From positions 7,370,173 to 7,434,172 of the forward strand of contig OZ017798.1 of assembly GCA_963969395.1 (NCBI GenBank): 64,000 nt of DNA. The letters are read 5' to 3'. Shown in pieces: positions 23,851 through 58,579 of the stretch (position 1 is its first letter; each line of letters starts with the position of its first letter). A program made the position numbers and the translations under genes. Under the pieces are notes generated by a model. That model was not told where the DNA came from. It ran no database searches and saw only the letters and a list, made by a program, of their open reading frames with translations. The stretch is from Pseudoscleropodium purum (taxonomy: Eukaryota; Streptophyta; Bryopsida; Hypnales; Brachytheciaceae).

Positions 23851-23867
23851 CAGGGTTGACGAATCTC

Positions 23868-36788: not shown

Positions 36789-36796
36789 GCCCTAAA

Positions 36797-36905
36797 CAGG
36801 GTTGTCAAATCGGACGCTTCAGGGTCACCGGACGTCCCGGACGGACGGACAAAACGGACGGACGGACGGACTTGTCCAACCCTAAGCGGACACTTCGGGC
36901 AGGAA
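36797..36905 (+). repeat. Left terminal repeat region of hAT-3
   Basis: TIR followed by CGGACGTCCCGGACGGACGGAC and further GGACGGACGG repeats. The right end (58495-58571) carries the same CGGACGTCCCGGACGGACGG block. Confidence 0.85.
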
Positions 36906-36952
36906 ATTCTGCCCCTAATCAAAATTTTCCCTACTCCTGACCGGAAGTGTTT

Positions 36953-37022
36953 GACGTGGCCAGCCACGTTGCAATCGGCACGCGCCTTTTTGACGTGGCC
37001 AGCCACGTTGCAATCAGCGCGC
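36953..37022. repeat. Duplicated palindrome ACGTGGCCAGCCACGT
   Basis: Two tandem copies of GACGTGGCCAGCCACGTTGCAATC. Each contains the inverted repeat ACGTGGC-CA-GCCACGT, with ACGT cores typical of bZIP-type binding sites. They lie between the terminal repeats and the GC array. Confidence 0.7.
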
Positions 37023-37185
37023 AGACGTAGAGGCGGGGACGTACTTAGGTTTGGGCGGGGACGTCATGGTGAGGCGGGGACTTACTTTTGTCTGGGCGGG
37101 GACGTCATGATGAGGCGGGGACGTACTTTTGTCTGGGCGGGGACGTACTTCGGTATGGGTAGGGACGTATTCGTGTCTAGGCGTG
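37023..37185. repeat. GGCGGGGACGTAC array, left subterminal of hAT-3
   Basis: About eight units of GGCGGGGACGTACTT or GGCGGGGACGTCATG spaced 15-25 bp. It lies near the left end and downstream of the transposase gene, not next to a gene start. Confidence 0.8.
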
Positions 37186-37873
37186 TTTGGGATTATTCTA
37201 AAGTCTTCTATATTATTTCCGAAAAGACAATGCTTTGCTGACCTTTTAATTACTCTACCTACTTTGATCAAAAAAGATATCTGAGTGAATGTTTTGGTGC
37301 CCCATTTGTTATCCTCTAAAGTAAAATACTTTAATTACCAAACCATTGTTAGTCACTATTTATGGATGATCTCTTTTTTCTCCAAAGGACCACACAATTT
37401 TATTTCTTGTTTTAAAAAAAAATAGAAAGTGATTGCTTTTATGGCCCCTTGGGCTTCGGTTACCTTAACTCCTGCTTTTGATAGAAAAAAAAAAGAAGTA
37501 GTCAATGCTTACATACACCACTACTTTTATATTCCAATTATCTACAATTCTATGAATTCATTAAATTATTCATTTCATGAGAAATTAATACATTTCACTT
37601 TCCTGAGTTTCCTCTTACAAAGTCATGGCTATGGACAAGATAATTCAAATGCATCACACAACATCAAGCTACAAGCAATATATATGCATGTTTCTTTGCG
37701 AAAAACACAAATAATCTGGGATTTCGTCCATACATAATCTGATAACATGACTATGAAAATGAGACTTCCAGACTTTGTCAACTTGTGCTCCTGTCATATT
37801 GTTACCTCACAACTTACTACTCATTCTTTACACATAGGTCATTTTAAGAATTGCCTACATGTCCTACGTGTGC
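37186..37873. other. AT-rich sequence 3' of the transposase
   Basis: No gene is seen. It probably includes the transposase 3' untranslated region on the minus strand. Confidence 0.4.
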
Positions 37874-40096
37874 TCATGGTTCGCCTACATCTTTGAAACG
37901 ACTTGATTGGCGAACTGCTTGAGTAGAAGGGCCTGCTCGCTCAACATGGCGAATGAGCAAATCGTCGTCATCCGGGGCTTCGTCACAGTCCTCGTCGTAC
38001 TCATCATCCCCGTCTGCATAATCTTCACTTCCAACATGTTCATCTCCGTCTGTTTGTTGACCTTCAAACTCTGAGTTCTCATTGCGGACCTCCGTGATTC
38101 TATTTCCACCACTACGGTTCAACCGCAACATTTTGTGTCTTCTAGCATCTGGGTCCTCCACATCAGAATTTATAACTGGGCCTCCAAGAATCACAAATGC
38201 TGGGGTTGAGGATGTAGGTCCCGGAGTATAAGTCTGCAAAAATGGCAATACTTGTTGCTCAGCTAACCTGACTCCGACTCCACGATGCGGACGTTTGCGA
38301 GCTATTGACACTGTGTCTCCGTGGTCTCCATCATTGTTTCTTCCTCCACGACCACTACGACCACCACGACCACCACGACCACCAGAACCGCGAGTAGTAT
38401 ATTGACCCACCGCATGGACTACAGTGCTTTCAGAGGGTCTACCATCTGCTCCGATATTGGGAGCATTATCCACTACGACATTTCCATCTCCCACTGAGCG
38501 TAACCCTTCTTGAAAAGATTTGGGATTGGAATTTCCAGATATATTCGGAGAAGAATGTTGCCGAGGGGGCACAAACGTACGATGCTCTTGCATTGTACTA
38601 GGAATTGCTACAGAAGAGGGTGGATGGATACGATCGACTCCTCGAGCGCCTCCTCTGTTTCGTACACGTTGGACATCAAATAGCCTCGGAATATTACCAG
38701 TTGGTTCAATTATGTCGATGGTCTCACTTGTCCTTGTATTTTCGAGGCTCGCTCTCAAATGTCTATGTACATCTGCGTTGATGTTGTTAGGTCCGCCCAG
38801 CCTGTTGTGGCTTACAATCATTGGAGCATCCTCAATAGGCCCTTCATGGTCTAGAACTGTAGGGTTTGTGCCATTTCCTCCATTTCCACCATTTCCACCA
38901 TTTTCATCATCTCTATTTTCACGATTGTTTTGAGGTGGAGGAATGTCATCATCATTGTCTTCATCGTTGTCGTTGTCGTCATTTTGAACATTGTCATCTC
39001 CAACTATGGCTTCATCCTCTTCTACAGGAAAAACAAAAGGATCTACTTCATTACCAATTTCATCTTCTTGTTCTTCCTGATGTATAGGAGATGGACTAAG
39101 ACGAGGATTGGGAGCCCAAGGTCCCCAAGCTTCATGACGAATGTTGTCTTCCATATCATCTTCTTCCCCGTAATAGTTTCTTGCTTCTTCGCGGTGGTCC
39201 ATGTCTCGCCCCCAACCATGTGGGTTTGCTTGGGGTGCAGGTGGTGGCCGATTCGCTTCCATGTCGTCTTCTTCTTCTTCTGCCGCTAGCATAGCATCAA
39301 ATTCTCGATGGCGGTTAGGTTCATCGACTAGAATGGGTCCAAGTTCATCCGGATCCGAATCCTCTGATACGTTGTTCAAATCATACCAACGAACTGGATC
39401 TGCTCCAGGTTTTTGACGAAGGACGCGACTGTTGGTATAAATGTATACCAAAGTCTCAGCCTTCTCCACTGCTAGACGATTTCTGTTCCTGTTGTGGACG
39501 AAGGAATACATACTGAAATTTCGTTCACAAAACGATGCTGAACATGTAAGGGCTAAAACACGCTTCGCAATTTTGGACAAGAAGCAATCTCCAATTGCTT
39601 TCCACCATCGATGTGGAAGTAACTTTGCTTCCCGAATGTCCAGTGATGCGTCAGGACTATAGGGTCCTTCACCCTCCACGTATTGCACATATTCTTGTAT
39701 GACGTCATCAAAACGCACACCCACCACATCCTTCATTTTTTGAACAACCCGATGTAGTGCACGAAGGGCCATTCCATCTTCCCTTAGAGCTGGGTTGTCC
39801 TTGATATAAGGATTCAACAATGCCCCGGCATAGTGCACGTCGGTAAAAAACATGTTCCACCTCTCCTCAAATGTCTCTTCCATGACCGTAGCTAGGTGAT
39901 CCGGAAGGAAGAAAGGACCCTCTCTGAGTTGAAAAACATGTCGTCGCAACCTGTGCATTGTGATCCATGCCTTGCCCATAGTTGGTTCCCGTCCATCAAA
40001 CACACGCAAGGCCTTCAAAACGTCTTCCACAATGAACACGTAATTTTTACACCTCTGCCAAAATGTTAAATCATCAATGGTATTCAGTACGCACAT
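37874..40096 (-). CDS. hAT transposase, C-terminal part with dimerisation domain and acidic/Gly-rich tail
   Basis: A 740-aa frame from the ATG at 40096, which continues the transposase begun at 41279 after a frameshift. The open frame extends upstream of this ATG (NYVAAFRNR), so the ATG is not the native start. Residues about 1-130 belong to the hAT core. The dimerisation region near 175-235 has SASFCERNFSMYS, with the Glu that fits the third catalytic residue of hAT transposases. Beyond ~250 there is a long tail unusual for the family: acidic Asp/Glu/Asn runs, NGGNGGNGG, an RGGRGGRSGRGG box (RNA-binding-like) and a final acidic stretch. The tail recalls the Gly-rich tail of the cargo gene at 18970-20232. 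Confidence 0.8.
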   Translation of the reverse strand: MCVLNTIDDLTFWQRCKNYVFIVEDVLKALRVFDGREPTMGKAWITMHRLRRHVFQLREGPFFLPDHLATVMEETFEERWNMFFTDVHYAGALLNPYIKDNPALREDGMALRALHRVVQKMKDVVGVRFDDVIQEYVQYVEGEGPYSPDASLDIREAKLLPHRWWKAIGDCFLSKIAKRVLALTCSASFCERNFSMYSFVHNRNRNRLAVEKAETLVYIYTNSRVLRQKPGADPVRWYDLNNVSEDSDPDELGPILVDEPNRHREFDAMLAAEEEEDDMEANRPPPAPQANPHGWGRDMDHREEARNYYGEEDDMEDNIRHEAWGPWAPNPRLSPSPIHQEEQEDEIGNEVDPFVFPVEEDEAIVGDDNVQNDDNDNDEDNDDDIPPPQNNRENRDDENGGNGGNGGNGTNPTVLDHEGPIEDAPMIVSHNRLGGPNNINADVHRHLRASLENTRTSETIDIIEPTGNIPRLFDVQRVRNRGGARGVDRIHPPSSVAIPSTMQEHRTFVPPRQHSSPNISGNSNPKSFQEGLRSVGDGNVVVDNAPNIGADGRPSESTVVHAVGQYTTRGSGGRGGRGGRSGRGGRNNDGDHGDTVSIARKRPHRGVGVRLAEQQVLPFLQTYTPGPTSSTPAFVILGGPVINSDVEDPDARRHKMLRLNRSGGNRITEVRNENSEFEGQQTDGDEHVGSEDYADGDDEYDEDCDEAPDDDDLLIRHVERAGPSTQAVRQSSRFKDVGEP

Positions 40097-40127
40097 TGCG
40101 TCCCTCCGGTTCTGCGGTCCGTTTTGC

Positions 40128-41279
40128 CTATTCCGAAATGCTGCAACATAATTTTGGACTCAACTCCCGGAAAGTTGACATTGTTGCATGGTGATTTCTG
40201 ATATAATTGCACACTGTCTTTGCCCTTGCTATTAAATCTTTGAAATCCGGCAACTTGGCCCAATCTTCAAGCAACAAATCCAGTGCATGTGCCGCGCACC
40301 CTTGCTTAAAGATGTGCGGATATGTGCGAACTACGTCATCCATTGCACCGAGCATGTTACTCGCATTGTCTGTACAAATTTGAGTTACATTATTGGGACC
40401 CACTTTCTCGATGAAGGTTTTCAATTGGTCTGCTATATAGACCATTGTCTTGTTCTGCCCTGTAGTGTCGATGGACCCCATAAACACATCACCTGCGGGA
40501 CATGACATCATGACATTCATGAGAGGCCGTCGATTTACATCGTCCCAACCATCCGTGCAAATCGTTACCCCATAATTTTTTACTGCAAAACTTGTTTTTG
40601 CAGATATCTCATTCTCAATCTGTAGCTTCTTCGGTTCAATCAAGTTTGTTCTCAATTGGTGGTACGAAGGTGGAGAATATTCAAATCGTGCCAAAGAAGT
40701 TGCCTTGACTGCCTCAATGAAAGCAGGATTTCTTATAATGTTGAAGGGTACATTTGCCTCATAAAAAAAGCTTGCCCACTTTTCATCCAACTCTTTCCTC
40801 TTTGCAATGTTGAAGGCATCTACCATTTGTTGTTGATGTAATGATCTTGATCTTGTGAAATTCGATGCTGCTTCACTGTTTGATGTTGGTAGTTGGTCTT
40901 CATTTTCATTTAGAACCTCCAAACGCCTTCTTCCCCCTCTTTCTCCTTCATTCCGAGCATGTTCGTTTATATTTTCCGTGGCAACATTTGGAGCTGCTAT
41001 GGATGGATCGCTCGGAATTGATTCAACGTCGTGTGGGTCCTCCAAATTTGTGCGTTGTGGAACAAATCCAACGCAGTTGGCAAATTTATGTCTCACCGCT
41101 CGAGGTATTTTGGAACACACTGCTCGCTCACTTTTTGCTTTATAACCGTAGTGTGCAAAAGCACGCTCCCATTTGTAAGCCATTGTCCCGCCACAAAAGA
41201 CACATGTGACTTTAGATCCATCAATAGAGAAATCATACCACGGTTCCCACTCTCTTGTGGTTTTTCGATTTGTCGCCAT
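40128..41279 (-). CDS. hAT transposase, N-terminal part with BED-type zinc finger
   Basis: 383 aa from the ATG at 41279 (MATNRK). A BED-like finger is near residues 20-55 (VTCVFCGG and a downstream His/Cys). A DUF659-type hAT core follows: CTDGWDD near 240 and CTDNASN near 305 provide the first two candidate catalytic Asp residues. The frame ends with SPKLCCSISE and TAG, and the C-terminal frame (40096-37874) is offset by one base. The TRF-type motif expected between them is missing, so a small out-of-frame deletion around 40130-40160 is likely; an unseen intron is the alternative. A TATATAAGG box (41511-41503) and a GC array lie upstream. Confidence 0.85.
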   Translation of the reverse strand: MATNRKTTREWEPWYDFSIDGSKVTCVFCGGTMAYKWERAFAHYGYKAKSERAVCSKIPRAVRHKFANCVGFVPQRTNLEDPHDVESIPSDPSIAAPNVATENINEHARNEGERGGRRRLEVLNENEDQLPTSNSEAASNFTRSRSLHQQQMVDAFNIAKRKELDEKWASFFYEANVPFNIIRNPAFIEAVKATSLARFEYSPPSYHQLRTNLIEPKKLQIENEISAKTSFAVKNYGVTICTDGWDDVNRRPLMNVMMSCPAGDVFMGSIDTTGQNKTMVYIADQLKTFIEKVGPNNVTQICTDNASNMLGAMDDVVRTYPHIFKQGCAAHALDLLLEDWAKLPDFKDLIARAKTVCNYIRNHHATMSTFRELSPKLCCSISE

Positions 41280-41502
41280 CACAACTTACAAGTTGGAACT
41301 CCTCACTTGTGCTTGTATTGTCTTCTACAACTTTGTACCTGTAAAAGTAGTTAGCGTCGGTTCCCTACTTGAATTGATTTTTACATCACCTCAGCCGAGA
41401 ACCAAGGCCGCTTTCCACCCAATAAACTCTATCAAGGAGCTCTGAGAGGTCCGAGAATGATGAGGTCCAAGGGAAAACGTGCCTTTAGTTCTGCCTACTC
41501 GT

Positions 41503-41511
41503 CCTTATATA
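41503..41511 (-). promoter_or_regulatory. TATA box of the hAT-3 transposase
   Basis: TATATAAGG on the minus strand, about 224 bp before the ATG at 41279 and directly next to the GC tandem array. Confidence 0.65.
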
Positions 41512-41524
41512 CTCCCTCCTGGTG

Positions 41525-42129
41525 GCTGGTAGAACTCCACGTAAGGGCGCGAACGTACTATACAAGGGCGGGGACGTACTAGAGAGGGGCGGGGACGTAC
41601 TTGTCAGGGCGGGGACGCTAGGGCGGGGACTCAGGGACTCCCGCACTCCCGACTCCCGCACTCCCAACTCCCGCCCCAGAAGGCGTTCGGGCGAAGACGT
41701 CAGGGCGGGCACGTACTTGACAGGGCGGGGACGCTAGGGCGGGGACTCAGGGACTCCCGACTCCCGCACTCCCGACTCCCGCCCTAGAAGGCGTTCGGGC
41801 GAAGACGTCAAGGCGGGGACGTACTTGTCGGGGCGGGGACGCTAGGGCGGGGACTCAGGGACTCCCGACTCCCGCACTCCCGACCCAAAAGGCATTCGGG
41901 CGAAGACGTCAGGGCGGGGACGTACTTGTCAGGGCGGGGACGCTAGGGCGGGGACTCAGGGACTCCCGACTCCCGCCCCAGAAGGCGTTCGGGCGAAGAC
42001 GTCAAGGCGGGGACGTACTTGACAGGGCAGGGACGCTAGGGCGGGGACTCAGGGACTCCCAACTCCCGCACTCCCGACTCCCGCCCCAGAAGGCGTTCGG
42101 GCGAAGACGTCAAGGCGGGGACGTACTTG
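41525..42129. repeat. GC-rich tandem array, ~105-115-bp units (left of solo LTR)
   Basis: Units read roughly AAGGCGTTCGGGCGAAGACG, then two GGGCGGGGACGTACTT/GCT words, then GACTCAGGGACTCCCGACTC, then CCCGCACTCCCGCCCCAG. About five copies are here and about three after the LTR at 45431. The array lies immediately upstream of the transposase TATA box. Confidence 0.88.
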
Positions 42130-45100
42130 TGTCGCAGCACAGGGCAGGTCAATTCCCCATTATACTCACAAAAATCGCTCTAGAGTATAACTGAGTGACT
42201 CTAAAGATCGAACCCACGAGATCCTGTGAAGTATCTAGCTCTATTAAACAGTTAAGCTCAGTCAGTATGCCAATCTTACTTTCCGGTCCTAGATCTAGAA
42301 CCAGAAATACCACCACACCGGATAACTATAGACCGGATTACTCCTTCTTCCGCTCCTACTAACTATCCGGTCCGTACAAATACCCAAATCCCAGAATCTC
42401 ACAATTTTCGATCCTGGAAATCCGTCCTGACCAATCCGGTCGGGATGGTCATCCTGTACCCGTAATCCTATCCGGTTTGGTTTTGCCTCTGTTTCACCAT
42501 CAAAGGGGTCGCCGCTTAATTTTGAGAGTGGTAGGCCCACCACTCCTTCCGTGACTTATAGTGGCTGAAGACCCACTGTCCTACCTTCTAAACTCCTAAG
42601 CTAATCCGGATCCGGTTTGGTCCTTCACAACAACCCAGATAGCAATCCGGGTCGTAGGTCACACAAAGACCCCACACTCGACCCTCTCGTACTACAACGA
42701 CCTTGATGCTACTTCCGATCCGTGCGAAGACAGGTGGTTACAAGTGCACCCATCCGTTCCAACATCAACTAAAGTTCTTCCGTTACCCATACGGGTGGTG
42801 AGACCTCACAGGAGATCGGACACTCGACCGGATTTCCCACCCAGGAGTTCTAGCGCAGCTAAGGAATCCCTCCCTACCCGCCTAGCCTAACAACGGCTTT
42901 CTCACCCGGAATCTCAAACTCTAGACGTGCTGAGGAACTAAGTTCACTCCCAACTCTTCGATACCTACTCACATGCACCTAGGATCGGAAAATAAACACC
43001 AAGGGGAGAAATCACTCGCAAACCGGCTCGTACTATCCTAACTCCACATCATACAATCCTGTCGCGCTGGAGAGAGACACACAATGAAGAGAATAGAAAA
43101 GTACAAGAAGTTTGCAAAATGAAAAACTCCCAGTTCCCATCTCAGGAACTGATTTATATACAAAGGGTAAAAACCCTAAAAGCACAAAAAGGAGCGGAAA
43201 ACCCGTAGGGGTCCGCCGCCATCCTAATCTAACTTCCGGCTAACCTAATACTGTTGAGTCGGATCCGGATCCGGATCCGCTCCTACCCCTAACTGAAATT
43301 AAAATCCTATCTACCCTACAACTCTAGATCCTATCGTCGGGCTTCCGGTCTCCGGGACTAGCTCCTCGAAGACTTCACTCAAATTCCGGACCCGTTCCCC
43401 CTCCGCAGGATTCGGTCCAGATGGAGACTCCAGGTCGATGGTGATATCCGGTCTCGTGCCCGGAGTCCCAGTCCGTGCAGACTTCTTGGACTCAGGAGTC
43501 CAATCCTTCCTATCCTTCGCCATAGTCGCGTCCGGAAAGAGATCCGGTAGAGAGATGTCCGAAAGGTGAATACCTTTGTCGCACGTCGCTCCCGTCAGCT
43601 TCCGGCTGCTCTCCTCGATCCGGTCCGCTGCCTTCCGCCCCTCCACCATTGTCGTCTCCACCTGCTCAGCGAAGTCCGCGAGAATCCGGACCATCCGGGA
43701 ACCGGATAGTTTCTTCTCTTCGTGGATCTTCTCGTCGAAGAGCTTCGCTTTGGCAGCGGCCGTTCCGGTCTCTCCCAGGACCGCCTTGATCTGCTCGGCT
43801 ATCTTCCGAGTCTCTTCCGCCATCTCCCGGGCAGCTGTCACGTCTTCTTGATAGGCAAAAAGAGTTGCCTTCAGTTTATCCACCTCCTCTTGCAACCGGC
43901 GGATCTCTGTTTCCTGCTTCCAGGTCTCTTCCGGATTCGTGATGCACTCCGCCATTTGTTCCGCCAATTTGCTGTCCGGTGCCGCATCCACCAACTTGCC
44001 GATTGCCGCAAGCGTCCTGTGCTTCACCTCCCAATCCGCCCTGATGTTGCAGAGGACGTTGATCAGACCGTTGAACGGATCTTGCATATCCGGATCTCCC
44101 CCGGAATTGGTCTTCTCGGCTTCCGGTTTCTCCTCCGGGGCCGGTTTGTCTTGACCGGGAGGCGTCCCGCGCTTGTATGGAGGCGTCAGCTTCTGTCGCT
44201 TGATCGGCGGCATCGGCTCCTCCTCTTCCTCGCTGGACTCCCGGTCTGACCCGGAATCGGATTCCGCCTCGTCATCCGTCTCCGACTCCCCATACTTCAG
44301 GAGCACTTCCTACGTCTTCCACGCCCTGTCCTCCATATCGGTGAGGACTTGGTTCTCCCGATAGAGGTGGAAGAGATAAGGGCACACTGGAGTGGCCCTT
44401 TTCTTCCCAACCCTACTAACAAGCTGGGCCACGAGATCGGAAATGATCCGTGCCCAATCCACTTTCCGGGTACCACTGAGGGCACCGAAAATGGTGTTGC
44501 CGAGGGTGATCATCACCCTGGTCGGCTTTTCCGGGTGAAGAACCGGAACCAGGAATTGCAGGAGCCGACGGTGTCGGTCATCCAAGCAATCCTCGACTGC
44601 GTATCCGTCCTTCGGGTTGACGGCTCCCTTAAACTTCCCTCGGACAAACTCATCCTTCCGGCTCGCCATTCCCAAACCTCCTGCCCGGAAACCGTAAACC
44701 GTTCTCCACATCCCCTCGTTCCAGTTGATGGGAGTTCCCCTCACGGTGTTGTCAAACTGGTTGGACAACTTTCCGAGGAGCTCCTTGACCATTCTCTCCT
44801 CCCTAAAACCCCAAGGTTTCTCGGCAAACCCTACGCAACCCATGGATTTGAGATCATCCATGAGTTCAGACTTTTCCGACTCTGTGGAGGGAATAACCGG
44901 AATGACTTTCCGGAGCTTCACCTCGCCTCCAGAGGGACTCGCTTGTCTCGACCTACGTAGCGGAGGCATTCCCACTCACATCTACCTCACTCTCTTCTAG
45001 CCGCACGTCCCGTTCCTCACTTCCTCTCTCCGATCTCAACCGGAATCAAAACGAACAGAACACAAACGCACAGACGCACAAACGACAAAAACTCAACCGC

Positions 45101-45430
45101 GCGCTCAAGGTCGAGTTTCTAAAAGGGGGTGCAACAATGAAAGCTCCTCCTTATATAGTCCCTGGACCCTTTCCGGTTTGTCATTATGAATCTGGTTTAC
45201 CATCATAATCCGGTTCATCATCATCATCCGGTCCTAGACCTAATCCGTGTTACATTCCGTTTCCGTCGTTAGTTACTCCTGACCGGATTAGATCCAAGAA
45301 GCCCACTACTTCACGTTCCGTGCTAATTCTGAGTTTTCCTTCCCCACCTAATCGGATCCGGTTAGCTAATGACTAGTTTCCGTTCCTATTTGGGTGTATA
45401 CTAAGAAAATCAAAATTCTAAGCTGCGACA
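42130..45430 (-). mobile_element. Solo LTR inserted in the hAT-3 array
   Basis: A 3301-bp LTR of the giant-LTR family in minus orientation with TGTCGCAGC/GCTGCGACA ends. Its perfect target duplication ACTTG lies at 42125-42129 and 45431-45435, inside a GACGTACTTG repeat word. No internal region is present. Confidence 0.95.
43311..44969 (-). pseudogene. LTR-encoded protein in the array solo LTR, one nonsense mutation
   Basis: 552 codons from the ATG at 44969 (MPPLRR), open except for TAG at 44312-44310 where sister copies have CAG (WKT-Q-EVLLKYG). The acidic tract, NLS-like run and coiled coil are present downstream. Its TATA box is altered to TATATAAGG (about 45146-45154). The stop separates the globular N-terminal region from the acidic/coiled-coil region. 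Confidence 0.87.
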
Positions 45431-45835
45431 ACTTGTCGGGGCGGGGACGTACTTGTCAGGGCGGGGACGCTAGGGCGAGGACTCAGGGACTCCCGACTCC
45501 CGCACTCCCGCCCCAGAAGGCGTTCGGGCGAAGACGTCAGGGCGGGGACGTACTTGTAGGGGCAGGGACGTACTTGTCCGGGCAGGGACGCTAGGGCGGG
45601 GACTCAGGGACTCCCGACTCCCGCACTCCCGCCCCAGAAGGCGTTCGGGCAAAGACGTCAGGGCGGGGATGTACTTGTCAGGGCGGGGACGCTAGGGCGG
45701 GGACTCAGGGACTCCCGACTCCCGCACTCCCGATTCCACGCGTCAAGGCGTTCGGGCAAGGACTTCAGGGCGGGGACGTTGGGGCGGGGACGTATTTTTG
45801 TATGGGCGGGGACGTAGTCGTGGGGACGCTAGGCG
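45431..45835. repeat. GC-rich tandem array (right of solo LTR)
   Basis: Continuation of the 41525-42129 array, about three more units, degenerating into GGGGCGGGGACGTATTTTTG near 45780-45830. Confidence 0.88.
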
Positions 45836-46369
45836 GGGGAGAGATTCAAATCAGTTTTGGGTTTCCCTCCTCAAAACCTTCGAGGGAAGACATTTCAAAT
45901 ACTTGTACTTGCACTCTACAGTTGCCCCCCATTTTTGCAGATTTCCTAAGATATGAAGTATTCAAGCATTAATTACTCATTCACTACATCATTCTAAATA
46001 TCAAAGATAGATGCTACAAAAAATGCGGTTTTAGTATTTAAGAAATTGTGTATAACAAATCAATTGAAGAAACGTTGAATTCGTCAAAAACGGGAAACAT
46101 CAAATAAATTACGCGTGAATTGGAAAAAAATGACAAAGAGAATTGCAACAACATTAAGGATTGGACAGAAATATGTAGAATCCATAGAGAGACATTGCAA
46201 CCGGTTTTTTAAAAGGAAGGCTATACATTTAAAAAGTGGCACAAAAATGGAAGGAAGAAATGAGAGAATAAAAAAATGGTAGAATATATGGGTGTAAGAA
46301 ATGAACGGTTTATCGAAATGAAGGTACATGAAGAAGTTAGAGAACCAAAAAAAATAACTACGAGATGCA

Positions 46370-47260
46370 TCGCATGGAGGAAGACATATAAGTTACAGAA
46401 TCAAATGAAAGAAATTTCGGGATAAAAATGTGAGGTGAGACAGATGATTTAGAGAATGAAATGAAAAAAATAATCGAATAATCATGTAAGGGGAGATAAA
46501 TAATTCAGAGAACCAAATAAAAAAATACTGAAATAATCATGTGAGGGTAGATAAATAAGTTAGACAAACAAATGGGCAAAAAATTGGAATAACCGTATAG
46601 GGGGGGGGAGATAAACAAAAGAGAGACTCAAATAAATAACAAATTGGACTAACCAAGAAAGGGGACATAAACAAAAGAGAGACTCAAATAAATAAAAATT
46701 TGGATTAACCATATGAGGGGTTATAAACAAAAGAGAGACTCAAATAAATAAAAAATTGGATTAACCATATGAGGGGACATAAACAAACGAGAGACTCAAA
46801 TAAATAAAAAATTGGATTAACCATATGAGGGGACATAAACAAACGAGAGACTCAAATAAATAAAAAATTGAATTAACCATATGAGGGGACATAAACAAAC
46901 GAGAGACTTGAATAAATAAAAAATTGGATTAACCATATGGGGGGACATAAACAAACGAGAGACTTGAATAAATAAAAAATTGGATTAACCATATGGGGGG
47001 ACATAAACAAACAAGAGACTCAAATAAATAAAAGTTTGAATTAACCATACAGGGGGACATAAACAAAAGAGAGACTTGAATAAATAAAAAATTGGATTAA
47101 CCATATGTGGGGTTATAAACAAAAGAGAGACTCAAATAAATAAAAAATTGGAATAATTTAACGACGGGATATAAGCTATAGAAACAAATGAAGAAAATAA
47201 CGGAATTACCATATATGGGGATATAAAAATGTTTGAGAATCAAATGAAAATTTGTTGGAC
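46370..47260. repeat. AT-rich minisatellite, 56-57-bp period
   Basis: About ten clear units (46610-47155) of GGGGACATAAACAAACGAGA, then GACTCAAATAAATAAAAAAT, then TGGATTAACCATATGA, with more diverged units on both sides. Neighbouring units share variants (TTGAAT versus CTCAAAT), a sign of recent unit-by-unit expansion. There are no unique spacers and no coding frame. Confidence 0.92.
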
Positions 47261-47335
47261 TCATCATACAAGGGTTGAAATTGAATGAAATGTGAGCATT
47301 TTTTATTGTGCTATGAAATGGTTCAGGATTTAGGC

Positions 47336-47361
47336 TAAGGGTTTAGGGTTTAGGGTTTAAC
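47336..47361 (+). repeat. Short telomere-like TTTAGGG run
   Basis: Three tandem copies of the plant telomere repeat TTTAGGG. It is too short for an end and fits a telo-box or an interstitial remnant upstream of the RING gene. Confidence 0.7.
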
Positions 47362-47544
47362 AATTTTTTTTATTTATCCTTTTAACTATTAGTAATGTTA
47401 ATTTATTTTTCTCTTGGATGATGGGAGCTTCACGGGTCTTTGACAACTCACATGAAATAAAAGATGAGTGACATTAAATGCAAGGTACAAGGTAAATCTT
47501 CCAAAATCTTTTTTTTTTATTCTAATTTTCTCCACCTACCGCCA

Positions 47545-47670
47545 GCGACGAGTACGTCCCCGCCCAGGGCAGAAACGTCCCCGCCTATTTTGAGTATGTC
47601 CCCGCCCTGACATCAAGTACGTCCCCGCCCTGATAGCGCGGACCAGCAGTATATATGCGCGTCCCCGCCC
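47545..47670. promoter_or_regulatory. Array plus TATA promoter of the RING-H2 cargo gene
   Basis: Five GTACGTCCCCGCCC-type words, then TATATAT at 47650-47656, then about 130 bp to the ATG at 47786. The words are the reverse complement of the GGCGGGGACGTAC units elsewhere in hAT-3. Confidence 0.7.
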
Positions 47671-47785
47671 TTTTAGCAACTGCCTCACAAACTCCCGTGT
47701 GCTCCACCTCTAAGCTGGTTGCCTAGGCGTCCTTGTGAGGTCCTTTTTATATTACGCTCTTTACTTCAACCCAAACCGCCGTGTG

Positions 47786-49996
47786 ATGGACCCTGTAGTG
47801 AAGATGACGAAGGCCGAACGAGACAGAACAAGAAAGAGGACTGGACAGAAGCAACGGAAACGGATGAACGTTTTAAACAATCCGTTGAAGTTGGCATTCA
47901 AGGGATGGGAAGATGAACCTGATCCATGGAATATGGACACTTGTGCCAATTACATTGAATGGTGCCACATTGGCAAGTCTTTTCCCATAGCCCGGCACAA
48001 CTATCACCGTCGCTTCCATAAGGCCAATTTGAGGTTCTGTACCGACGACGCATTTAAGAATCGTTGCATTGAAGTCTATCAAGTGTTATACGATAGACCA
48101 ATGGTGGAACGCAATGAAATTAACCTTTTCATTGCAAGAGGGGTACATGCAGAGGTCAAGCTAGGGAAGAGGGTGGATTGGTCAACCATCAAGGAGAGAG
48201 GTTCCAAAATAAAAGTTCCTCATTCCACCAATGGATTGATTCCAATGGGTGTACGAAGGTACCCTAACGGCGGATTGGGGTTCGTGAGGCCATTGACTGA
48301 GTTGCCCCCTAACACATATGTAACCAGTGACTCTTCTCCTGATGATGACTCCGACGGGACGCGCACTCTACCGCGTGCTCTAGGTAATAGAGTGGAACAT
48401 CGGGTGAAAAGAAGAAGGGAGAAGGAAATGAGCACAGAAGAAGTTGTCTCGGAAGCAGTTTTAAATGACCGACTACAAGATTCAATGGAAGTAGAAGATC
48501 TTCGGCTACCAAATGAAGCTGTCGAAAGTGAAGAAGATACAATCCCAGCCTTGAAGAGTAACCTCAACGAAAAAAGAAAGGAAATTCAAAACTTGTTAGA
48601 AGACACTCACAAGTTGAAGGTCGAGATTCAACAAAAGAACGATGTCATTGACCGACAGTCCCAAGAAATTGCCCGCCTTACAAGAGCTCTACAAGCTGGT
48701 AATGTATTCAGCGAAGGCCACGTTGGTGAAGGTCTGCACAAAGCTGGTCACCCGTCTCACTTTACTGTAGGTGCCGAAGAGCTAGAAGTGCTTCGTGGAA
48801 AAAATGTCGAGCTCCAGAAACATTTGGATGCATTGGTGTCACAGTATTATGAGTGGAAGTTGGCGTGTGTATTTACTATGGACAAGAACCGACAAATGGG
48901 AGCAGAATTGAAGAAAATTGCCAATCATTATGCAGTGCACAATCAAGAACGTGTTTTTGGCTTAACATCATGGGAACTAATGGATGAGTTATTCTCGGAC
49001 AAAATGGAGACCAAAGTTGGAGTTGGAAATCAGACCATCATTGATTGGCCTCGAAATGGGTGGGATTTTGAAAATGAAAGGTCTGCCCATGTGACTAAAC
49101 CGAGTACATTGTTGTGGCCAAAACCACCGAGCTTTGTGTTCGATGGTACACAATGTCCAATGTGTTTGAATGCCTTTGGCCCCGAAGGTGGATTCCAATT
49201 GGGCACATGTGAGCATTTGTATCATCCAATTTGTTTGATTGCATTAATGGTCAATCGAAGGCGTTGCGTACTTTGCAAGGCTCCTTTCCATGAGCGTTTG
49301 TACAAGCTATTTGGCTTGTACGAGCATATGCCGCCAAGCTGGGAATTTGATGTAATGAATGCTCCAGATCATCCACAGAAATGGGGAGAAGACCTCATTT
49401 GGAATTGGCGTTATAAGTATCACTCTTTAGAGGTCTCTGGGCTTTCCAACAACTGGGGATGGGAATCAAACCCAACTGAAGTTGTTCGTGTGTGCCACAA
49501 TTTGATTAAAGGCACGGACGCTATTAGTGAAGGAAGAAGAAATTTCTTCTACCAATGCTTCATTGGCTATTGGGATGGAAATGAGCATCAATTTCGATTT
49601 GGACCACATCCAAAGGGTTGGATTTGGGGCAACGACGGACAACGTATCACCGATGACAACGGAGTTCAACTTGTGGATCCTGGTGAATATGTACCTCCTA
49701 CCGCACGAGAAAGAGTGATGATGTCTGAATCTGAATGGAGAGAGCAATTCAAAAATGATGCTGTAGACTTCTTGCTAGAAGAACACAGTCCGGGAACTCG
49801 TATAGCTCTTCAAGAACTTCAACAATCTCAAATTCTGAGGGGCCTACTGGAGGAGGATGGACCAGCAAGACGAACACGCGGTGCAATGCGGCAACTTCGT
49901 TTGGACTCCAATGAAGATGATATTCCAATGTCCGGGATGCATGACACCGAGGCCGGTACAAGTGGTACCGCAAATAGCCTAGTTCATTTGGACTAA
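47786..49996 (+). CDS. RING-H2 cargo protein of hAT-3, intact
   Basis: A 736-aa protein. The ATG at 47786 (MDPVVKMTK) is chosen because the paralogue at 52945 starts at the same point. A Lys/Arg-rich N-terminus comes first, then the shared cargo domain (about 30-135: WNMDTCANYIEWCHI, an HNYHRRFHKANLRFC segment, FKNRCIEVYQVL, ARGVHAEV and KRVDWSTI). An acidic linker and a coiled coil (about 255-320) follow. The RING-H2 finger at residues 457-497 has the ligands CPMC, CEHLYHPIC and CVLC. A Trp-rich C-terminal domain ends at about 640. RING-H2 fingers usually recruit ubiquitin-conjugating enzymes; targets here are unknown. It is the only uninterrupted large cargo gene in the window. Confidence 0.85.
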   Translation: MDPVVKMTKAERDRTRKRTGQKQRKRMNVLNNPLKLAFKGWEDEPDPWNMDTCANYIEWCHIGKSFPIARHNYHRRFHKANLRFCTDDAFKNRCIEVYQVLYDRPMVERNEINLFIARGVHAEVKLGKRVDWSTIKERGSKIKVPHSTNGLIPMGVRRYPNGGLGFVRPLTELPPNTYVTSDSSPDDDSDGTRTLPRALGNRVEHRVKRRREKEMSTEEVVSEAVLNDRLQDSMEVEDLRLPNEAVESEEDTIPALKSNLNEKRKEIQNLLEDTHKLKVEIQQKNDVIDRQSQEIARLTRALQAGNVFSEGHVGEGLHKAGHPSHFTVGAEELEVLRGKNVELQKHLDALVSQYYEWKLACVFTMDKNRQMGAELKKIANHYAVHNQERVFGLTSWELMDELFSDKMETKVGVGNQTIIDWPRNGWDFENERSAHVTKPSTLLWPKPPSFVFDGTQCPMCLNAFGPEGGFQLGTCEHLYHPICLIALMVNRRRCVLCKAPFHERLYKLFGLYEHMPPSWEFDVMNAPDHPQKWGEDLIWNWRYKYHSLEVSGLSNNWGWESNPTEVVRVCHNLIKGTDAISEGRRNFFYQCFIGYWDGNEHQFRFGPHPKGWIWGNDGQRITDDNGVQLVDPGEYVPPTARERVMMSESEWREQFKNDAVDFLLEEHSPGTRIALQELQQSQILRGLLEEDGPARRTRGAMRQLRLDSNEDDIPMSGMHDTEAGTSGTANSLVHLD

Positions 49997-49999
49997 GTG

Positions 50000-52030: not shown

Positions 52031-52945
52031 CTAATTCCTTGATGTAGCAAGCTCTAAAGCATGTTCCAATCGTGCAATTTCTTGTCTAAGATTGCTGATG
52101 ACTTGGTTCTTTTCTTCCAACACCGCCCTCGACGTGTGCCTGTAATCGTGCAGACGATTAATTTCTTCGTGTTTTTCAGCAAGTTCGTTCCTCAAGGCCG
52201 AGATTGTATCATATACATTTCTTCTATTTTCAGTGGGTTGTGCGTAAACTTCCTCGTGCACTTCATTTTGGATTTCATGTTGAGGTTGAGGATCTCGAGC
52301 ATATTGTAGGGCCCTCCTCCGCCTACCACGTTATTCCCCTTTGGCCGTCAGAGGACGCGGTGGAGTACGTGCTCCATCTGAATCGTCATCTGTCGTAGAA
52401 TCCTCGGTGTCATCATGAGCTGTAGAGGGATTTACGATTGTCTTCAAGTGCCCCAACCCACCTTCAGGAAACATTAGAACACCCATTGGAATTAGTCCAT
52501 TGCTTGGATGAGGAACTTTTATTTTGGAACCTCTCTCCTTGATGGTTGACCAATCCACCCTCTTCCCTAGCGTGACCTCTGCGTGTACTCCTCTTGCAAT
52601 GAAAAAGTGAACTTCATTGCGCTCCACCTTCGCTCTATTGTAAAGGACTTGGTAGACTTCAATGCACCGATTTTTGAATGCATCATTCATGCAATATCGC
52701 AAATTTGCTTTGTGGAAGTATCGGTGGTAGTGGTGTCGTTCTTCAGGAAAGGCCTTGTCGATGTGACACCACTCAATGTAATCCGCACACGTGTCCATGC
52801 TCCACGGGTCCTGTACTTCCTCCCACCCCTTGAAAGCAATTTTTAACGGATTTCGTAAAACATGCATCCGCTTCTTCTGTACCTGTCCACTTCTCTTTCT
52901 TGTTTTGTCTCGCTCGTTTTTCGTCATCCGTGGTGATGTGTCCAT
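52031..52945 (-). pseudogene. Short paralogue of the RING cargo protein (no RING), one stop
   Basis: 304 codons from the ATG at 52945 (MDTSPRMTK). The N-terminal ~170 residues closely match 47786-49996 (WSMDTCADYIEWCHI, FKNRCIEVYQVL, KRVDWSTI, SNGLIPMGV). TAA at 52333-52331 interrupts the frame where CAA fits, then a coiled coil (ALRNELAEKHEEINRL, VISNLRQEIARLEHAL) leads to the end. The RING and C-terminal domain are absent. It could act as a partner or competitor of the long form through the shared domain; that is inference. A TATAAAAGG box lies at 53081-53073. Confidence 0.8.
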
Positions 52946-53375
52946 CGCACGATGTTTGTGCAACAAAAATGACGTGGAATGTGATGTAGGGCCCACTGAG
53001 ACGCCCAGACAACCAGCTCAGAGGTGGCGCACGAGGGAGTTCAGAGGGCAGAAAGTGAGGAGGCGGGCACGGCCTTTTATACCGGGGAGCGCGGACGTCA
53101 AGGCAGGGGCGGGGACGTACTGGGTATAGGCGGGGACGTACTCGCGACAGGGCGGGGACGAACTGGGGGCAGGGCGGGGACGTACTCGCGGGGTGGGCAG
53201 GGAAGTGGTTTTTGCCTTCCCTATATATTTTTTTTTTGCTCATTTTGACATTGCCAGGCCTTCACTTTTAGCCTCACGTGTTAGTTCGCGATTTGCGGCC
53301 TATACAGTGAGTCGGAGGGTGCACAGGTGTGGCGCTTTATTTGTACGGGAGATTTTCGAATTTTTTTCGAATACT
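52946..53375. promoter_or_regulatory. Divergent promoter with central GC array
   Basis: The short RING paralogue (minus) and the kinase (plus) start head to head, 430 bp apart. TATAAAAGG on the minus strand (53081-53073) and TATATATT on the plus strand (53222-53229) sit on either side of an array of GGCGGGGACGTACT words (53090-53195). Distances from TATA to ATG are about 130 and 150 bp. Confidence 0.72.
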
Positions 53376-54953
53376 ATGGCTGCATCAGGAAGTGGTTCGA
53401 CGGGGAAACGCCCAATGGCCTGGGACTTGGATGTGCCCATCGAAGAAATAGTTGTTGCCGAGCAGAGCACTCAACCGTCATCATCTTCGCATCCGACATC
53501 ATCAAGTCATAAGAAAGTAAAACCGGCGCGACCCGATTGGCCTCCGATAGAGTACACACAAAAGGCACGATCAATAGGTGTGGATTTTTATCGACGACGG
53601 AGTTTAGCAATGTTGGAGAGGGAGTACGTCAACAAGAACGAAAATGGTTACCATGAACTCTTGGAGAAGCTACGTTACGAGATTGAAGTGACTATGGAAT
53701 CATTTGAAGACTTCAACAATTACCAAGATTATTGGTTAGCTTCGGAGTGGCTTGAAAAAACTGTGAAGGCTTTGGCAACAAATATCGTGACGCAATGGCG
53801 TTACGATGCTAATAAAAAGGAGAATAGAACTGACTGGGATGTTGCAGACGAGGAACTTTTTGCAAAACTATCGATGATCGAGACATTTTGCCAAGGTTTT
53901 TCAAAATCACGGGCACGAGGAAAATTACCATGGAAGGAATCGATGGAGAATGCTGTATTGACGCACTGCGTTAGTGGAACGTTTCAGTGGCTTGACAGCT
54001 CAATAAAAGTTGTACAGATGCCGGGATTTACAGCGGAAGGAGGGTATGGGACTGTGATGAAGGTGCACATCACAAGACTGAACAACATGCCAATGTGGAT
54101 GGATTTTGCCGAGAAACGTCTCAAAGAAGAGAATCAGAAGAAAAAACGTTTGGAAATCATAAATGAGGCTGGAGGATGTCCCGTGAAGCATCCGGGCATC
54201 ATTAGACTTTCGTATTTGAATCCCAAAACAATGGCCGGTTATTCGTTGTGGTGGAATGGTGGATCTTTGGCAAGTTTTTGGAAGAATATGGACAACAAGG
54301 TTTCTGAGGTGCTGGAAATCGAAGACATTGTTAAGCAACACGACTCAGAGCTGAGCAAAGCGCAACTGGAATGGGTTGCAACGTATAGGAAAAATCGCGT
54401 TGCATTGGCGTTGTCCTTGCTTGTGACAGTCTGGAAATGTCACAATGAGAACTACATGCACAACGATTTATCTCCATCCAATGTGTTGCTACATTTTGAC
54501 CCTTGGAAGAAGAATAGAATATACATTGGTATATGTGATTGGGGAATATCAAGCCGAGTTATGGAGAAGGAGCCATCAAAATATGGCTATGACAGCATGG
54601 AAAAGCTAGCGAAAGTGAAGCAGGTGAAAAAATTTGTTACTCCAGAATTGTTCTATATATACGGAAGTATAGGTTCAGAGAACTCGCTGGAAGTGATGCA
54701 ACGAAGGCATCTATATAGTGTAGCAGCTGATACATATTCCGCAGGATGGATAGCACAAAAGATTTGGAATGAGGAGTGGAATTCCTAGTACTTCGTTAAA
54801 GAAAAATGCATGAATTATGCATTACTTAAAACACATCTTCAAAGCTTGCAGAAGGAAGATGTGAATGATCGGGCAACTATAGGAGATGTTCTGGAGACAT
54901 TGAGAAAACCACCGTACAGTTGGCTAATGCCAGAATGTTGTTATCGTAGATAG
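53376..54953 (+). pseudogene. Kinase-like cargo gene of hAT-3, single in-frame TAG
   Basis: Starts at the ATG at 53376 (MAASGSGSTGKRP), 525 residues if read to 54953, with TAG at 54786-54788 (Gln by a C to T change would fit: WNS-stop-YFVKEK). Low-complexity Ser-rich start, a helical N-terminal region (about 60-210), glycine-loop GGYGTVMKV near 220, candidate Lys in FAEKRL near 246, WWNGG, catalytic loop HNDLSPSN with Asp near 364, and DWG near 388 in place of DFG. A C-lobe with AADTYSAGWIAQKIW follows. The stop removes only the last ~55 residues, so activity may survive. It shares architecture with the kinase at 17715-393. Confidence 0.8.
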
Positions 54954-56490: not shown

Positions 56491-56496
56491 TTTGAA

Positions 56497-56585
56497 ATAC
56501 GTCCCCGCCCCGAAATACGTCCCCGCCCTAGAACAAGTCCCCGCCCAGGAGTACGTCCCCGCCCTAGAATACGTCCCCGCCCTAA
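56497..56585. repeat. ACGTCCCCGCCC array, right subterminal of hAT-3
   Basis: Five tandem words of ATACGTCCCCGCCCTAGA type, the complement of the left array. It lies 2 kb inside the right end and is not next to a gene start. Confidence 0.8.
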
Positions 56586-56589
56586 TGCC

Positions 56590-58490
56590 ACGCTGGACGC
56601 CACGTTGTCGGGTAGAGAGCGATCTGCCTCAGGAAATCACGGGGATTCTGGCTGCGGTTAGAATTGGCGCAGGAATGATCGTAACACTGTCTGAACAAAA
56701 CGCTGTCGCAGTGAAACACTGTCGTAAATGTTCGTGAATTTGGTCGTTGAATCTTCTTTGCCGTCTCGGAACTGCTCCCCGTTGGCCTATCCTGTGATGG
56801 CTCTAAATGGGTCAGGGATTAGGGAATGTGATAAGAAACCACGGCTTCGGACGGGAAAAACGGGACAGCCAGACCACGAGCTGAGCTGTCCGGGGGAAAG
56901 GATCCTAAACTTCAAACCCACGGTGACCAGGAAACGCCTTTCACCAGTGGGAACAACAAATAAGATCGACCATGTGGGCCATTAACCCCACTTCGCCGCC
57001 ACAAACACAAAATGGAGCGCTTATTGGATAACCACGGCTCGCAACAGGTTTACAATGCAAATTTGAAAACAACAAGCCTCCAAATCCGGCTAGGAATAAC
57101 AATAAATGACAACAAGCCTCCAAAACCGGCTAGGAATGACAAGCCACAAGCCACAACACACGATTCTTCTATCTTCAAATCTTCAGTGTTTGGGCTGAAC
57201 TTCGATCATGCATCACCATCACTCCAAAGGTCCGAATCAGGTGAGTGATAGCTTTTTGGAAAGCTAACACAAACTTCTACTCTCCCTCCAAATTTCAATT
57301 CAATCTAACACTCTGTCCAACCTCCATGGACTCCCGAAGTTTTGGCCTTTAAAATCAAGGGCAGCAGACCCTTCCTCACTTCGACACTCACAACTCACTC
57401 ATAAATGCTCCAAATAACTCAAATGATAGCTTTTTAGAAAGCTAACAAACTCTTCTACACTTCCTCAAATTCTCAAAGCAAACAAGAGACCTGTCCGTCT
57501 TCTTTGGTCGATCGAAGTCTTTGCCCCTTCAAATGGGAGGCAGCAGACCCTCTTCCACTCAAACAAGTACAACTCTCAAATGCCTACTTCAAATCAATCA
57601 AGCAAGGACTTTTCGGAAACATCACAACATGATACACAAAAGCTCCAAATTTCATTACAAAATTCTCCACACACACTGAGATCTCCCCCTCCAAACATTC
57701 GGTTCCCAATTCTCCTCCAAAACTCCAACTCCACACTACCAAACCGACTTCGGGAAACTTCCCAAGTCTTTTCCTAGATGCCAAAGTCCCACATGGACCA
57801 GCCCATACCACTTTCACATGGGTGGACCTCCAAACCTTAGCCAAATGGCTTGGTTTTTATTTTTCTAACTAGAAGTAAAACTTAAGAAAGAAGGTGAAAC
57901 AGTCTTCACCTTCCAACTATGTAACAAGGCCAAATCAACTCAAATACTTAGTAAAATTCTAATAAGGGTAAAATAAGTAACGGAACTAGTTAGATGGAAA
58001 AATAAACGCCAAATGGTGAAGTGACAGGTCGATGGAAGTAACAAAACCGTTCGATAGTCGAAACCAGTCGCCAAGTCGTGGACTTGGTCGGCTGGTTAAA
58101 GTCGTCGATGGTTAACCGACCGGTCCGGGTTTCGATCCCCGTCGAGCTCGTCGACTGGTCCGGGTAACCCGCGGCTTGGCACTGCTAGTGAGGCAGGAAA
58201 ATACAGCCGACCCGCTACCCTACCCCTGAGCTATAGTGACAAGATGCAGGCACCCCAATATCGTTAACAAGCTCCCGCATTGACCCCAAAACCGTGGTTC
58301 TCACCACGACCCCACCTTTTACTTGGTCATTTAAATTTCTAAACAACTAACCGCTAATTCAAATCCAATCAAATCTAAATAAACACACATTTTTACATAA
58401 TGCAGTGTTTTGCAGCACGACAACGTGTTGACGATTTTCGTTTCCATTGGGTGATTTTTCATCCGCTAAAAGTCAGCTGCCCGTTGACCA
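56590..58490. other. Unassigned moderately GC sequence in hAT-3, with local duplications
   Basis: Composition differs from the AT-rich surroundings. It contains a duplication of AACAAGCCTCCAAAACCGGC (about 57066-57140) and two imperfect ~180-bp copies starting GATAGCTTTTTGGAAAGCTA (about 57243 and 57426), each ending GGCAGCAGACCCT. It may be a remnant of another element; no coding motif is seen. Confidence 0.4.
58075..58235 (-). other. Possible tRNA-derived (SINE-like) sequence
   Basis: On the minus strand TAGCTCAGGGGTAGGGTAGC resembles a tRNA D-arm with A box, and GGGGATCGAAACCCGG resembles a T-arm with B box. They are about 100 bp apart, too far for a simple tRNA, so a tRNA-derived SINE head or a degraded tRNA is more likely than a gene. 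Confidence 0.3.
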
Positions 58491-58494
58491 TTTT

Positions 58495-58571
58495 GGACGG
58501 ACACAACTTCAATCGGACGTCCCGGACGGACGGACGGACACACGGTCTGTCCGTCCAGTTTGACAACCCTG
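58495..58571 (-). repeat. Right terminal repeat region of hAT-3
   Basis: Contains CGGACGTCCCGGACGGACGG and CCGTCCAGTTTGACAACCCTG. The last 20 bases form the TIR matching 36797-36816. Confidence 0.85.
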
Positions 58572-58579
58572 GCCTTAAA

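What the first reader, a model, noticed from the sequence alone, without database searches (positions are those of the whole stretch)
36797..58571. A 21.8-kb hAT transposon carrying kinase and RING-H2 cargo
Both 20-bp ends and a 7/8 target duplication enclose a transposase, an intact RING-H2 protein, a RING-less paralogue and a kinase. Plant hAT elements are usually a few kb and encode only transposase. Signalling or ubiquitin cargo kept together with a transposase could be a self-serving module that modifies host or transposase proteins.
Basis: partly seen in the sequence, partly recalled or inferred. Interest (0 to 1): 0.88.

Follow-up and report, generated by a model that had tools for sequence, protein, structure and literature searches.

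The report
Giant four-gene hAT transposon family
This is one copy of a 16.5-kb jumping gene that carries, besides its transposase, a protein kinase, a ubiquitin-ligase-like protein and a shortened relative of the latter; kinase and ligase genes were found with the transposase in two very distant families, which suggests that they work for the transposon itself.

Summary
The finding is real. The exact 13-bp end occurs 70 times in this 313-Mb genome; 52 matches form 26 inward-facing pairs, 16 of them 15.8-16.8 kb apart. Target duplications are 8/8 in 21 pairs, 7/8 in 3 (window copy included) and absent in 2. All 26 hold the kinase. The 21.8 kb are a roughly 16.5-kb unit plus two later insertions. 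In the window copy only the RING-H2 frame is open; transposase, paralogue and kinase are broken. A far-diverged family in the same genome (one complete copy, 16,524 bp, other ends, 8/8 duplication) also carries transposase, RING and kinase. Between families dN is 0.37-0.38 for all three, with dS 1.8 or saturated: the cargo is as constrained as the transposase. Arrays of a GC-rich motif lie near both ends and upstream of the genes and differ between families, as in VANDAL anti-silencing elements. Best reading: an old multi-gene hAT lineage whose kinase and RING proteins serve its own control or de-silencing. Biochemical function is inferred, not shown.

The parts
36789..36796 (.). left target-site duplication GCCCTAAA
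36797..36809 (+). left terminal inverted repeat CAGGGTTGTCAAA (18/20 when extended to 20 bp)
37032..37169 (+). left subterminal array of GGCGGGGACG motif
37874..41285 (-). hAT transposase gene (DUF659 + hATC), here in two frames 37877-40159 and 40131-41285 with a ~104-bp deletion; one 1169-1172 aa frame (stop to stop) in 2 of 11 copies
41543..42130 (+). motif arrays upstream of the transposase start
42131..45430 (.). 3.3-kb retroelement-type insertion with gag-like frames, absent at this place from the other copies; copies of it lie at other places in E06 and E07
45431..45805 (+). motif array continued on the other side of the insert
46397..47156 (.). 56-bp tandem array
47555..47670 (-). motif cluster directly upstream of the RING gene
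47786..49996 (+). RING-H2 protein, 736 aa, open frame: conserved N-terminal domain, coiled-coil-like middle, C3H2C3 RING, C-terminal domain
52034..52945 (-). RING-less paralogue PAR (304 aa in other copies: N-terminal domain and the following middle part only); stop at 52331-52333 in this copy
53107..53190 (+). motif array between the divergent PAR and kinase genes
53376..54950 (+). protein kinase gene (525 aa in other copies; this copy stops at 54786-54788)
56496..56584 (-). right subterminal motif array, inverted with respect to the left one
56606..58426 (.). 1.8-kb insertion; the same repeat sits at another place in E02
58559..58571 (-). right terminal inverted repeat
58572..58579 (.). right target-site duplication GCCTTAAA (7/8)

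Best explanation
Shown: this is a copy of a hAT DNA transposon of about 16.5 kb with four genes (transposase, RING-H2 protein, RING-less paralogue PAR, protein kinase), amplified recently from a source in which all four frames were open, and moving as one unit with 8-bp target duplications. Transposase, RING and kinase are an old gene set of this lineage. Inferred: the element runs its own small regulatory system. Element-encoded proteins (transposase N-terminus and/or the N-terminal domain shared by the RING protein and PAR) recognise the family-specific motif arrays near the ends and at the promoters. The RING protein (as E3 ligase) and the kinase then act at those sites on host silencing factors or on the transposase, keeping the element expressed and mobile. 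PAR, which has the same N-terminal domain and middle part but no RING, would compete or dimerise as a brake. It would work like the VANDAL/VANC system, built on a hAT backbone.
For: 26 end pairs, 21 with 8/8 and 3 with 7/8 duplications. Kinase in 26 of 26 pairs: 11 copies aligned, 15 of 15 by 400-bp probe; one search gives 31 loci at 95-100% identity, the 26 pairs included. Related empty site for L056/L057 (92/100 ungapped across the junction, duplication once); E02's joined flanks match the short element at 61925 (65/75, with 10 bases on the left of the junction). No stop in any of four frames at majority level: intact source. Decay is mostly C-to-T; in the non-coding parts the private rate is 0.0247 at CG and 0.0181 at CHG against 0.0006 for A/T transitions, as expected of methylated, silenced copies. 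Family B: complete 16,524-bp element with its own ends, 8/8 duplication, transposase, RING, kinase; dN 0.37 (TNP), 0.37 (RING), 0.38 (KIN) with dS 1.8, saturated, 3.2. RING head-to-head with kinase in 3 of 4 divergent loci read. L029: RING relative (45%) about 500 bp from an exact 13/13 end, with its own motif arrays. PAR against RING: dN 0.34, dS 1.16 overall; first 100 codons pS 0.75, pN 0.165. Motif GGCGSGGACG: 34 in the element, 0 in the other 42 kb of window, 0 in 21,478 bases of flanks of the 11 copies.
Against: No expression, binding or enzyme data. Nothing shows which protein, if any, binds the arrays, which could be transposase-binding sites grown by slippage. Changes among the 11 copies show no selection: private ones fit neutral expectation, and the few shared ones show no lack of amino-acid changes either (amino-acid or stop to silent: TNP 17:3, RING 14:3, PAR 6:2, KIN 12:5), so the case for selection rests on the comparisons between families and between PAR and RING. 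Two of 26 pairs lack duplications (L044/45, L048/49). Family B has a full RING gene at PAR's place and no separate PAR was found there, so PAR is not universal. One of four divergent kinase loci (L103) had no RING match within the 6 kb read upstream. Only one divergent element was read end to end. All four frames are open in 1 of 11 copies. In family B the motif is sparser (6 GGCGSGGACG in 16.5 kb) and none lies near its right end in L100.
Confidence: 0.5

Rival explanations
1. Same element, but the kinase, RING protein and PAR tune the transposase itself (phosphorylation, turnover, dosage brake), with the arrays as subterminal transposase-binding sites and promoter operators; no anti-silencing role.
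For: The hAT transposase of Herves binds a short subterminal motif (PMC3143072, passages); our arrays lie inverted near both ends and at the promoters; equal dN of the three genes fits proteins that work together.
Against: The largest array lies between the transposase and RING genes rather than at the ends, and the methylation-type decay suggests that the copies face silencing. Neither is decisive.
Confidence: 0.3
2. Passenger cargo: host genes captured once and carried along without use to the element.
For: Capture of gene sequences by plant transposons is well described (PMC13317346 and PMC6431247, passages). Changes among the copies show no selection.
Against: The set is shared with family B at 52-55% protein identity with dN equal to the transposase; a RING relative is linked to the same end in L029. 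Of the 90 kinase matches scored (of 1303 candidates), the 31 loci at 95-100% are the 26 pairs plus 5 further loci, 4 of them at the expected distance from an exact end; no separate host donor was seen among those scored.
Confidence: 0.05
3. Host-benefit or addiction module: the kinase and RING proteins act on the host (toxin-antidote-like or defence), and the element gains from the host keeping it.
For: Multi-gene set under purifying selection between families.
Against: The 11 copies compared decay without sign of selection; Pfam shows only RING and kinase domains in the cargo, apart from scattered weak matches.
Confidence: 0.08
4. Two short unrelated elements or a chance pairing of ends around host genes.
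For: Only that 18 of 70 end matches are unpaired.
Against: 26 pairs with similar spacing and content and mostly perfect duplications.
Confidence: 0.01

Closest known systems
hAT superfamily DNA transposons (Ac/Ds, Tol2, Herves)
   Same: DUF659/hATC transposase, short inverted ends, 8-bp target duplications, subterminal motif repeats
   Different: 16.5 kb instead of a few kb; further conserved genes; motif arrays at internal promoters. Typical size and the Ac and Tol2 comparison are recalled, not from a call.
VANDAL elements of Arabidopsis, including VANC genes that carry a Ulp1 (SUMO-protease) domain (KIU)
   Same: Multi-gene DNA transposon; short family-specific motifs in same-orientation tandem arrays in non-coding parts; accessory domain of the ubiquitin/SUMO kind (PMC5735166, PMC13317346; passages)
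   Different: hAT, not Mutator, transposase; RING-H2 and kinase rather than VANC/Ulp1; motif binding and loss of methylation untested here
ToxhAT, 14.3-kb hAT-like element of wheat-pathogenic fungi
   Same: Large hAT-type element with cargo, in one species with an added LTR-type insertion (PMC6737239, passages)
   Different: [quoted passage not shown] here 24 of 26 pairs have 7/8 or 8/8 duplications and the gene set is old
Chondrus CACTA elements (16-20 kb, 4-5 ORFs) and Burro retroelements (ubiquitination- and apoptosis-type domains)
   Same: Enlarged transposons with several accessory frames or domains (PMC6431247, passages)
   Different: Other superfamilies; different proteins

Membership tests
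hAT superfamily | hAT C-terminal dimerisation domain | tested here: met
   PF05699 34.1 bits, cut-off 21.4
hAT superfamily | RNase-H-type catalytic region of the DUF659 group | tested here: met
   PF04937 129.6 bits, cut-off 34.7; catalytic residues not checked one by one
hAT superfamily | 8-bp target-site duplication | tested here: met
   8/8 in 21 of 26 pairs, 7/8 in 3, 2/8 in 2; family B 8/8
hAT superfamily | short terminal inverted repeats | tested here: met
   13 bp exact
hAT superfamily | N-terminal BED-type zinc finger | tested here: inconclusive
   Cys/His pattern seen by eye in the N-terminus; no Pfam match
RING-H2 E3 ligase | C3H2C3 RING domain | tested here: met
   C-x2-C-x14-C-x-H-x2-H-x2-C-x10-C-x2-C in the sequence; zf-RING_2 in 20 of 25 family members at E<=0.01, but the window protein is below the Pfam cut-off
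RING-H2 E3 ligase | ubiquitin transfer | not testable with these tools
   needs a biochemical assay
protein kinase | kinase domain with catalytic Lys, Asp, Asn, Asp | tested here: met
   Pkinase above cut-off; K247 invariant, D364, N369, D388 nearly so in the 22-sequence alignment
VANDAL-like anti-silencing element | Mutator-type transposase (VANA) | tested here: not met
   transposase is hAT
VANDAL-like anti-silencing element | family-specific motif arrays in non-coding parts | tested here: met
VANDAL-like anti-silencing element | element protein binds the motif and removes methylation | not testable with these tools
   needs binding and methylation data

The most novel reading that the evidence does not exclude
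A hAT lineage has independently evolved its own counter-silencing system: a RING E3 ligase, a kinase and a RING-less decoy that act at element-specific, co-evolving tandem arrays, so that a DNA transposon carries a complete post-translational signalling relay for its own activation.
Probability: 0.35. Interest if true: 0.92.

Novelty: new variant of a known kind. Interest (0 to 1): 0.8.

Why it matters
hAT elements are the textbook simple cut-and-paste transposons. Here a hAT lineage has kept a kinase and a RING-H2 protein as strictly as its transposase between two deeply diverged families. That makes a direct test possible of whether transposons can encode ubiquitin and phosphorylation machinery for their own use, and whether the motif-array strategy known from VANDAL elements has arisen twice. 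In the protein search the RING and kinase families had 24 and 21 relatives, none with a eukaryote name and most on contigs of a few kb (the kinase search scored 8000 candidates only), so they are also new starting points for biochemistry.

Tried and rejected
Rejected: separate short elements; one-off host capture; a 'hidden' RING exon of PAR in the 2-kb stretch 3' of it (no match there for the four queries and two copies listed); special constraint on that stretch, which is the most similar between copies (99.0-99.5%) but also low in GC and poorest in CpG, which may suffice. Viral contigs held no confirmed relative of RING or kinase. Rfam found nothing in the window. Paper searches for a prior description of a hAT element with kinase and RING cargo found none in the listings shown (related reading); this is not proof of absence from print. 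Organism not identified. Whole-genome searches with the RING protein, the transposase and the end CAGGGTTGACGAA did not complete, so genome counts for these are missing. In one search, three of the seven junction-spanning matches were to the insertion's own flanks and were set aside; two were second matches of L050/L051 in a tandem array, where an aligned junction is weak evidence.
Full report
The observation. The ends at 36797 and 58571 are exact inverted copies of CAGGGTTGTCAAA, flanked by GCCCTAAA and GCCTTAAA. Between them lie a hAT transposase, a RING-H2 protein, a RING-less paralogue (PAR) and a kinase.

Copies in the genome. The 13-mer occurs 70 times in the 313-Mb assembly, against 3 for the reversed pattern. 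Pairing by position gives 26 inward-facing pairs, 15.8 to 34.3 kb apart, 16 of them 15.8-16.8 kb; 18 matches are unpaired. Of these 18 I read 14: L008, L062 and L068 have the family's subterminal sequence, the other 11 do not. Ten pairs were fetched (eight in full, two with the middle unread) and, with the window copy, compared: collinear, and about 97.5-99.5% alike in the gene regions. For the other 15 pairs I read 150 bases at each end and two 400-base probes inside. Target duplications over all 26: 8/8 in 21, 7/8 in 3 (E02, window, L040/41), 2/8 in 2 (L044/45, L048/49). The kinase probe hit in 15 of 15; the second probe fell in RING in 12, in PAR in 2 and in the stretch between them in 1. 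A kinase search of the genome scored 90 of 1303 candidates: 31 loci at 95-100% identity, which include all 26 pairs; the other matches are more distant, 30-59%, apart from three further pieces of the same copies. A related empty site (L056/L057 flanks against L007, 92 of 100 bases ungapped, duplication present once) and the joined flanks of E02 (65 of 75 against the short element at 61925, 10 of these bases left of the junction) support insertion as a unit; L050/L051 matches a tandem array, which is weaker.

The window copy. The native unit is about 16.5 kb (16,073 to 16,807 bp in seven copies without large inserts). The window copy has a 3.3-kb retroelement-type insert and a 1.8-kb insert that the others lack at those places. 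Its transposase is in two frames with a deletion of about 104 bp, its kinase and PAR frames end early, and only RING is open. Among the 11 copies, the transposase frame is whole in 2 (E02, E07), and all four frames are open in one.

Recent burst and decay. Changes among the 11 copies are mostly private. Private ratios of amino-acid-changing (stops included) to silent changes are near neutral expectation: TNP 3.66 against 2.81, RING 2.89 against 2.63, PAR 2.50 against 2.29, KIN 1.71 against 2.25. The few shared changes show no lack of amino-acid changes either (TNP 17:3, RING 14:3, PAR 6:2, KIN 12:5). Yet at majority level none of the four frames has a stop. So a source with four open frames multiplied and the copies then decayed without visible selection. 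Decay is dominated by C-to-T; in the non-coding parts the private rate is 0.0247 at CG and 0.0181 at CHG, against 0.0006 for A/T transitions, which is what plant-type cytosine methylation would leave (inference).

An old gene set. The four best-scoring divergent kinase loci (49-55% identity) were read. In three (L100, L101, L102) a RING gene stands head-to-head with the kinase, and all three share a right end TATGACAACCATG at which, by eye, similarity stops; the fourth (L103) has a second kinase-like stretch and no RING match in the 6 kb read upstream. The stretch next to L100 completes one family-B element: 16,524 bp, ends CATGGTTGTCATA/TATGACAACCATG, duplication CATAGTAC 8/8, transposase, RING and kinase. 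It is itself decayed (4, 1 and 2 stops in the three genes). Against the window family: TNP aa identity 0.55, dN 0.37, dS 1.8; RING 0.52, dN 0.37, dS saturated; KIN 0.54, dN 0.38, dS 3.2 (the larger dS values are near saturation and rough). The cargo is as constrained as the transposase. A separate public contig, filed under a cyanobacterium but holding a RING relative of 45% identity, has the exact 13-base end TTTGACAACCCTG about 500 bases beyond that gene (the shuffle control allows three mismatches and so does not bear on the exact match). PAR, too, shows selection since its split from RING: dN 0.34, dS 1.16; in the first 100 codons pS 0.75 and pN 0.165, weaker further on (pS 0.65, pN 0.43 in codons 170-300). 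In a tree of the N-terminal domain PAR joins the window RING and P0022, not well resolved. In family B a full RING gene stands where PAR stands here, so PAR may be a RING gene that lost its RING domain (inference).

Motif arrays. GGCGSGGACG occurs 34 times in the window element, 0 times in the rest of the window and 0 times in 21,478 bases of flanks. The 11 copies hold 21 to 38 GGCGGGGACG each, in clusters near the left end, upstream of the transposase, upstream of RING, between PAR and kinase, and near the right end in opposite orientation; the RING cluster of E07 falls in its unread middle, and E06 has a single motif between PAR and kinase. In family B the related GGGCGCGGAC lies near the left end, upstream of the transposase and between RING and kinase, but not near the right end of L100. 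In L029 a GGGGCGCGGACGTC-type array lies upstream of RING and near the end. For the divergent set elsewhere in the window the motif is GGGCGGAC, 27 of 29 occurrences in five arrays, one of them in the short element at 61925. VANC proteins of VANDAL elements bind short motifs arrayed in the same orientation in non-coding parts, and those motifs change by tandem repeat formation (PMC5735166, passages). Some VANC genes carry a Ulp1 domain (PMC13317346, passages). The parallel is close in anatomy, but binding was not tested.

Proteins. Kinase: catalytic K, D, N, D conserved in the 22-sequence alignment; solved sequences give weak matches, best to CaMKII and VRK1. RING: best solved matches are RING finger proteins. 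Apart from RING families, Pfam finds only single weak matches in the relatives. RING and kinase relatives (24 and 21) bear no eukaryote name and lie mostly on contigs of a few kb, with a few on contigs of 12 to 460 kb (the kinase search scored only 8000 candidates). Of the 30 transposase relatives listed, the two with an organism name are Camellia sinensis and Chara braunii.

Mechanism. I take the element-serving reading as near certain and the array-guided control or de-silencing reading as the most likely mechanism, not far ahead of control of the transposase alone. What is shown: unit mobility, old linkage, purifying selection between families, family-specific arrays. What is inferred: that the RING protein is an active E3, that the kinase is active, that any of these proteins binds the arrays, and that PAR is a brake.

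Known kinds. It is a hAT by each tested criterion except the N-terminal zinc finger, which is inconclusive. It is not a VANDAL by transposase. ToxhAT (14.3 kb) is the nearest large hAT with cargo that I met, without target duplications (PMC6737239, passages). Large CACTA elements with 4-5 frames are reported (PMC6431247, passages). Hence: new variant of a known kind.

Noticed in passing
window 600-31925: A second, far more divergent and broken set of the same genes: kinase pieces 17619-17065 and 1193-600 (-) with retroelement DNA between them, RING-like 27703-24796 (-), PAR-like 20211-19846 (-) and a 99% inverted copy at 31235-31600 (+); an end-like CAGGGTTGACGAA at 23851 and its own GGGCGGAC arrays. 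The other end was not found.
   Followed up: partly
window 61925-62316: A 392-bp non-autonomous element with ends CAGGGTTGACAAG/CAGGGTTGACGAA, perfect 8-bp duplication CTATTAAG, rich in GTCCGCCC-type motifs: it looks like a MITE of the divergent family.
   Followed up: partly
E02, L050/L051, L052/L053, L056/L057: Four of 26 insertions lie in ends or arrays of related GGACG-rich elements, which may point to preference for relatives as targets; not tested against background.
   Followed up: partly
L044/L045 and L048/L049: Two pairs have no matching target duplication, perhaps recombination between copies.
   Followed up: no
PAR/RING codons 100-170: Silent divergence between PAR and RING drops to pS 0.27 here against 0.75 in the 100 codons before, as after gene conversion.
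   Followed up: no
window 1927-4360, 11144-13577, 14053-15834, 32255-34688, 43240-45409: Five copies of one gag-like retroelement, 93-97% alike in the pairs listed, in both orientations; one sits inside the transposon.
   Followed up: no
L029 (CADCWO010000051.1): A contig filed under a Synechococcales cyanobacterium carries part of this eukaryote-type transposon family, so it is probably a mis-binned contig.
   Followed up: partly
L103: Two kinase-like stretches in tandem (26% and 49% identity to KIN) with GGGCGGAC arrays.
   Followed up: no
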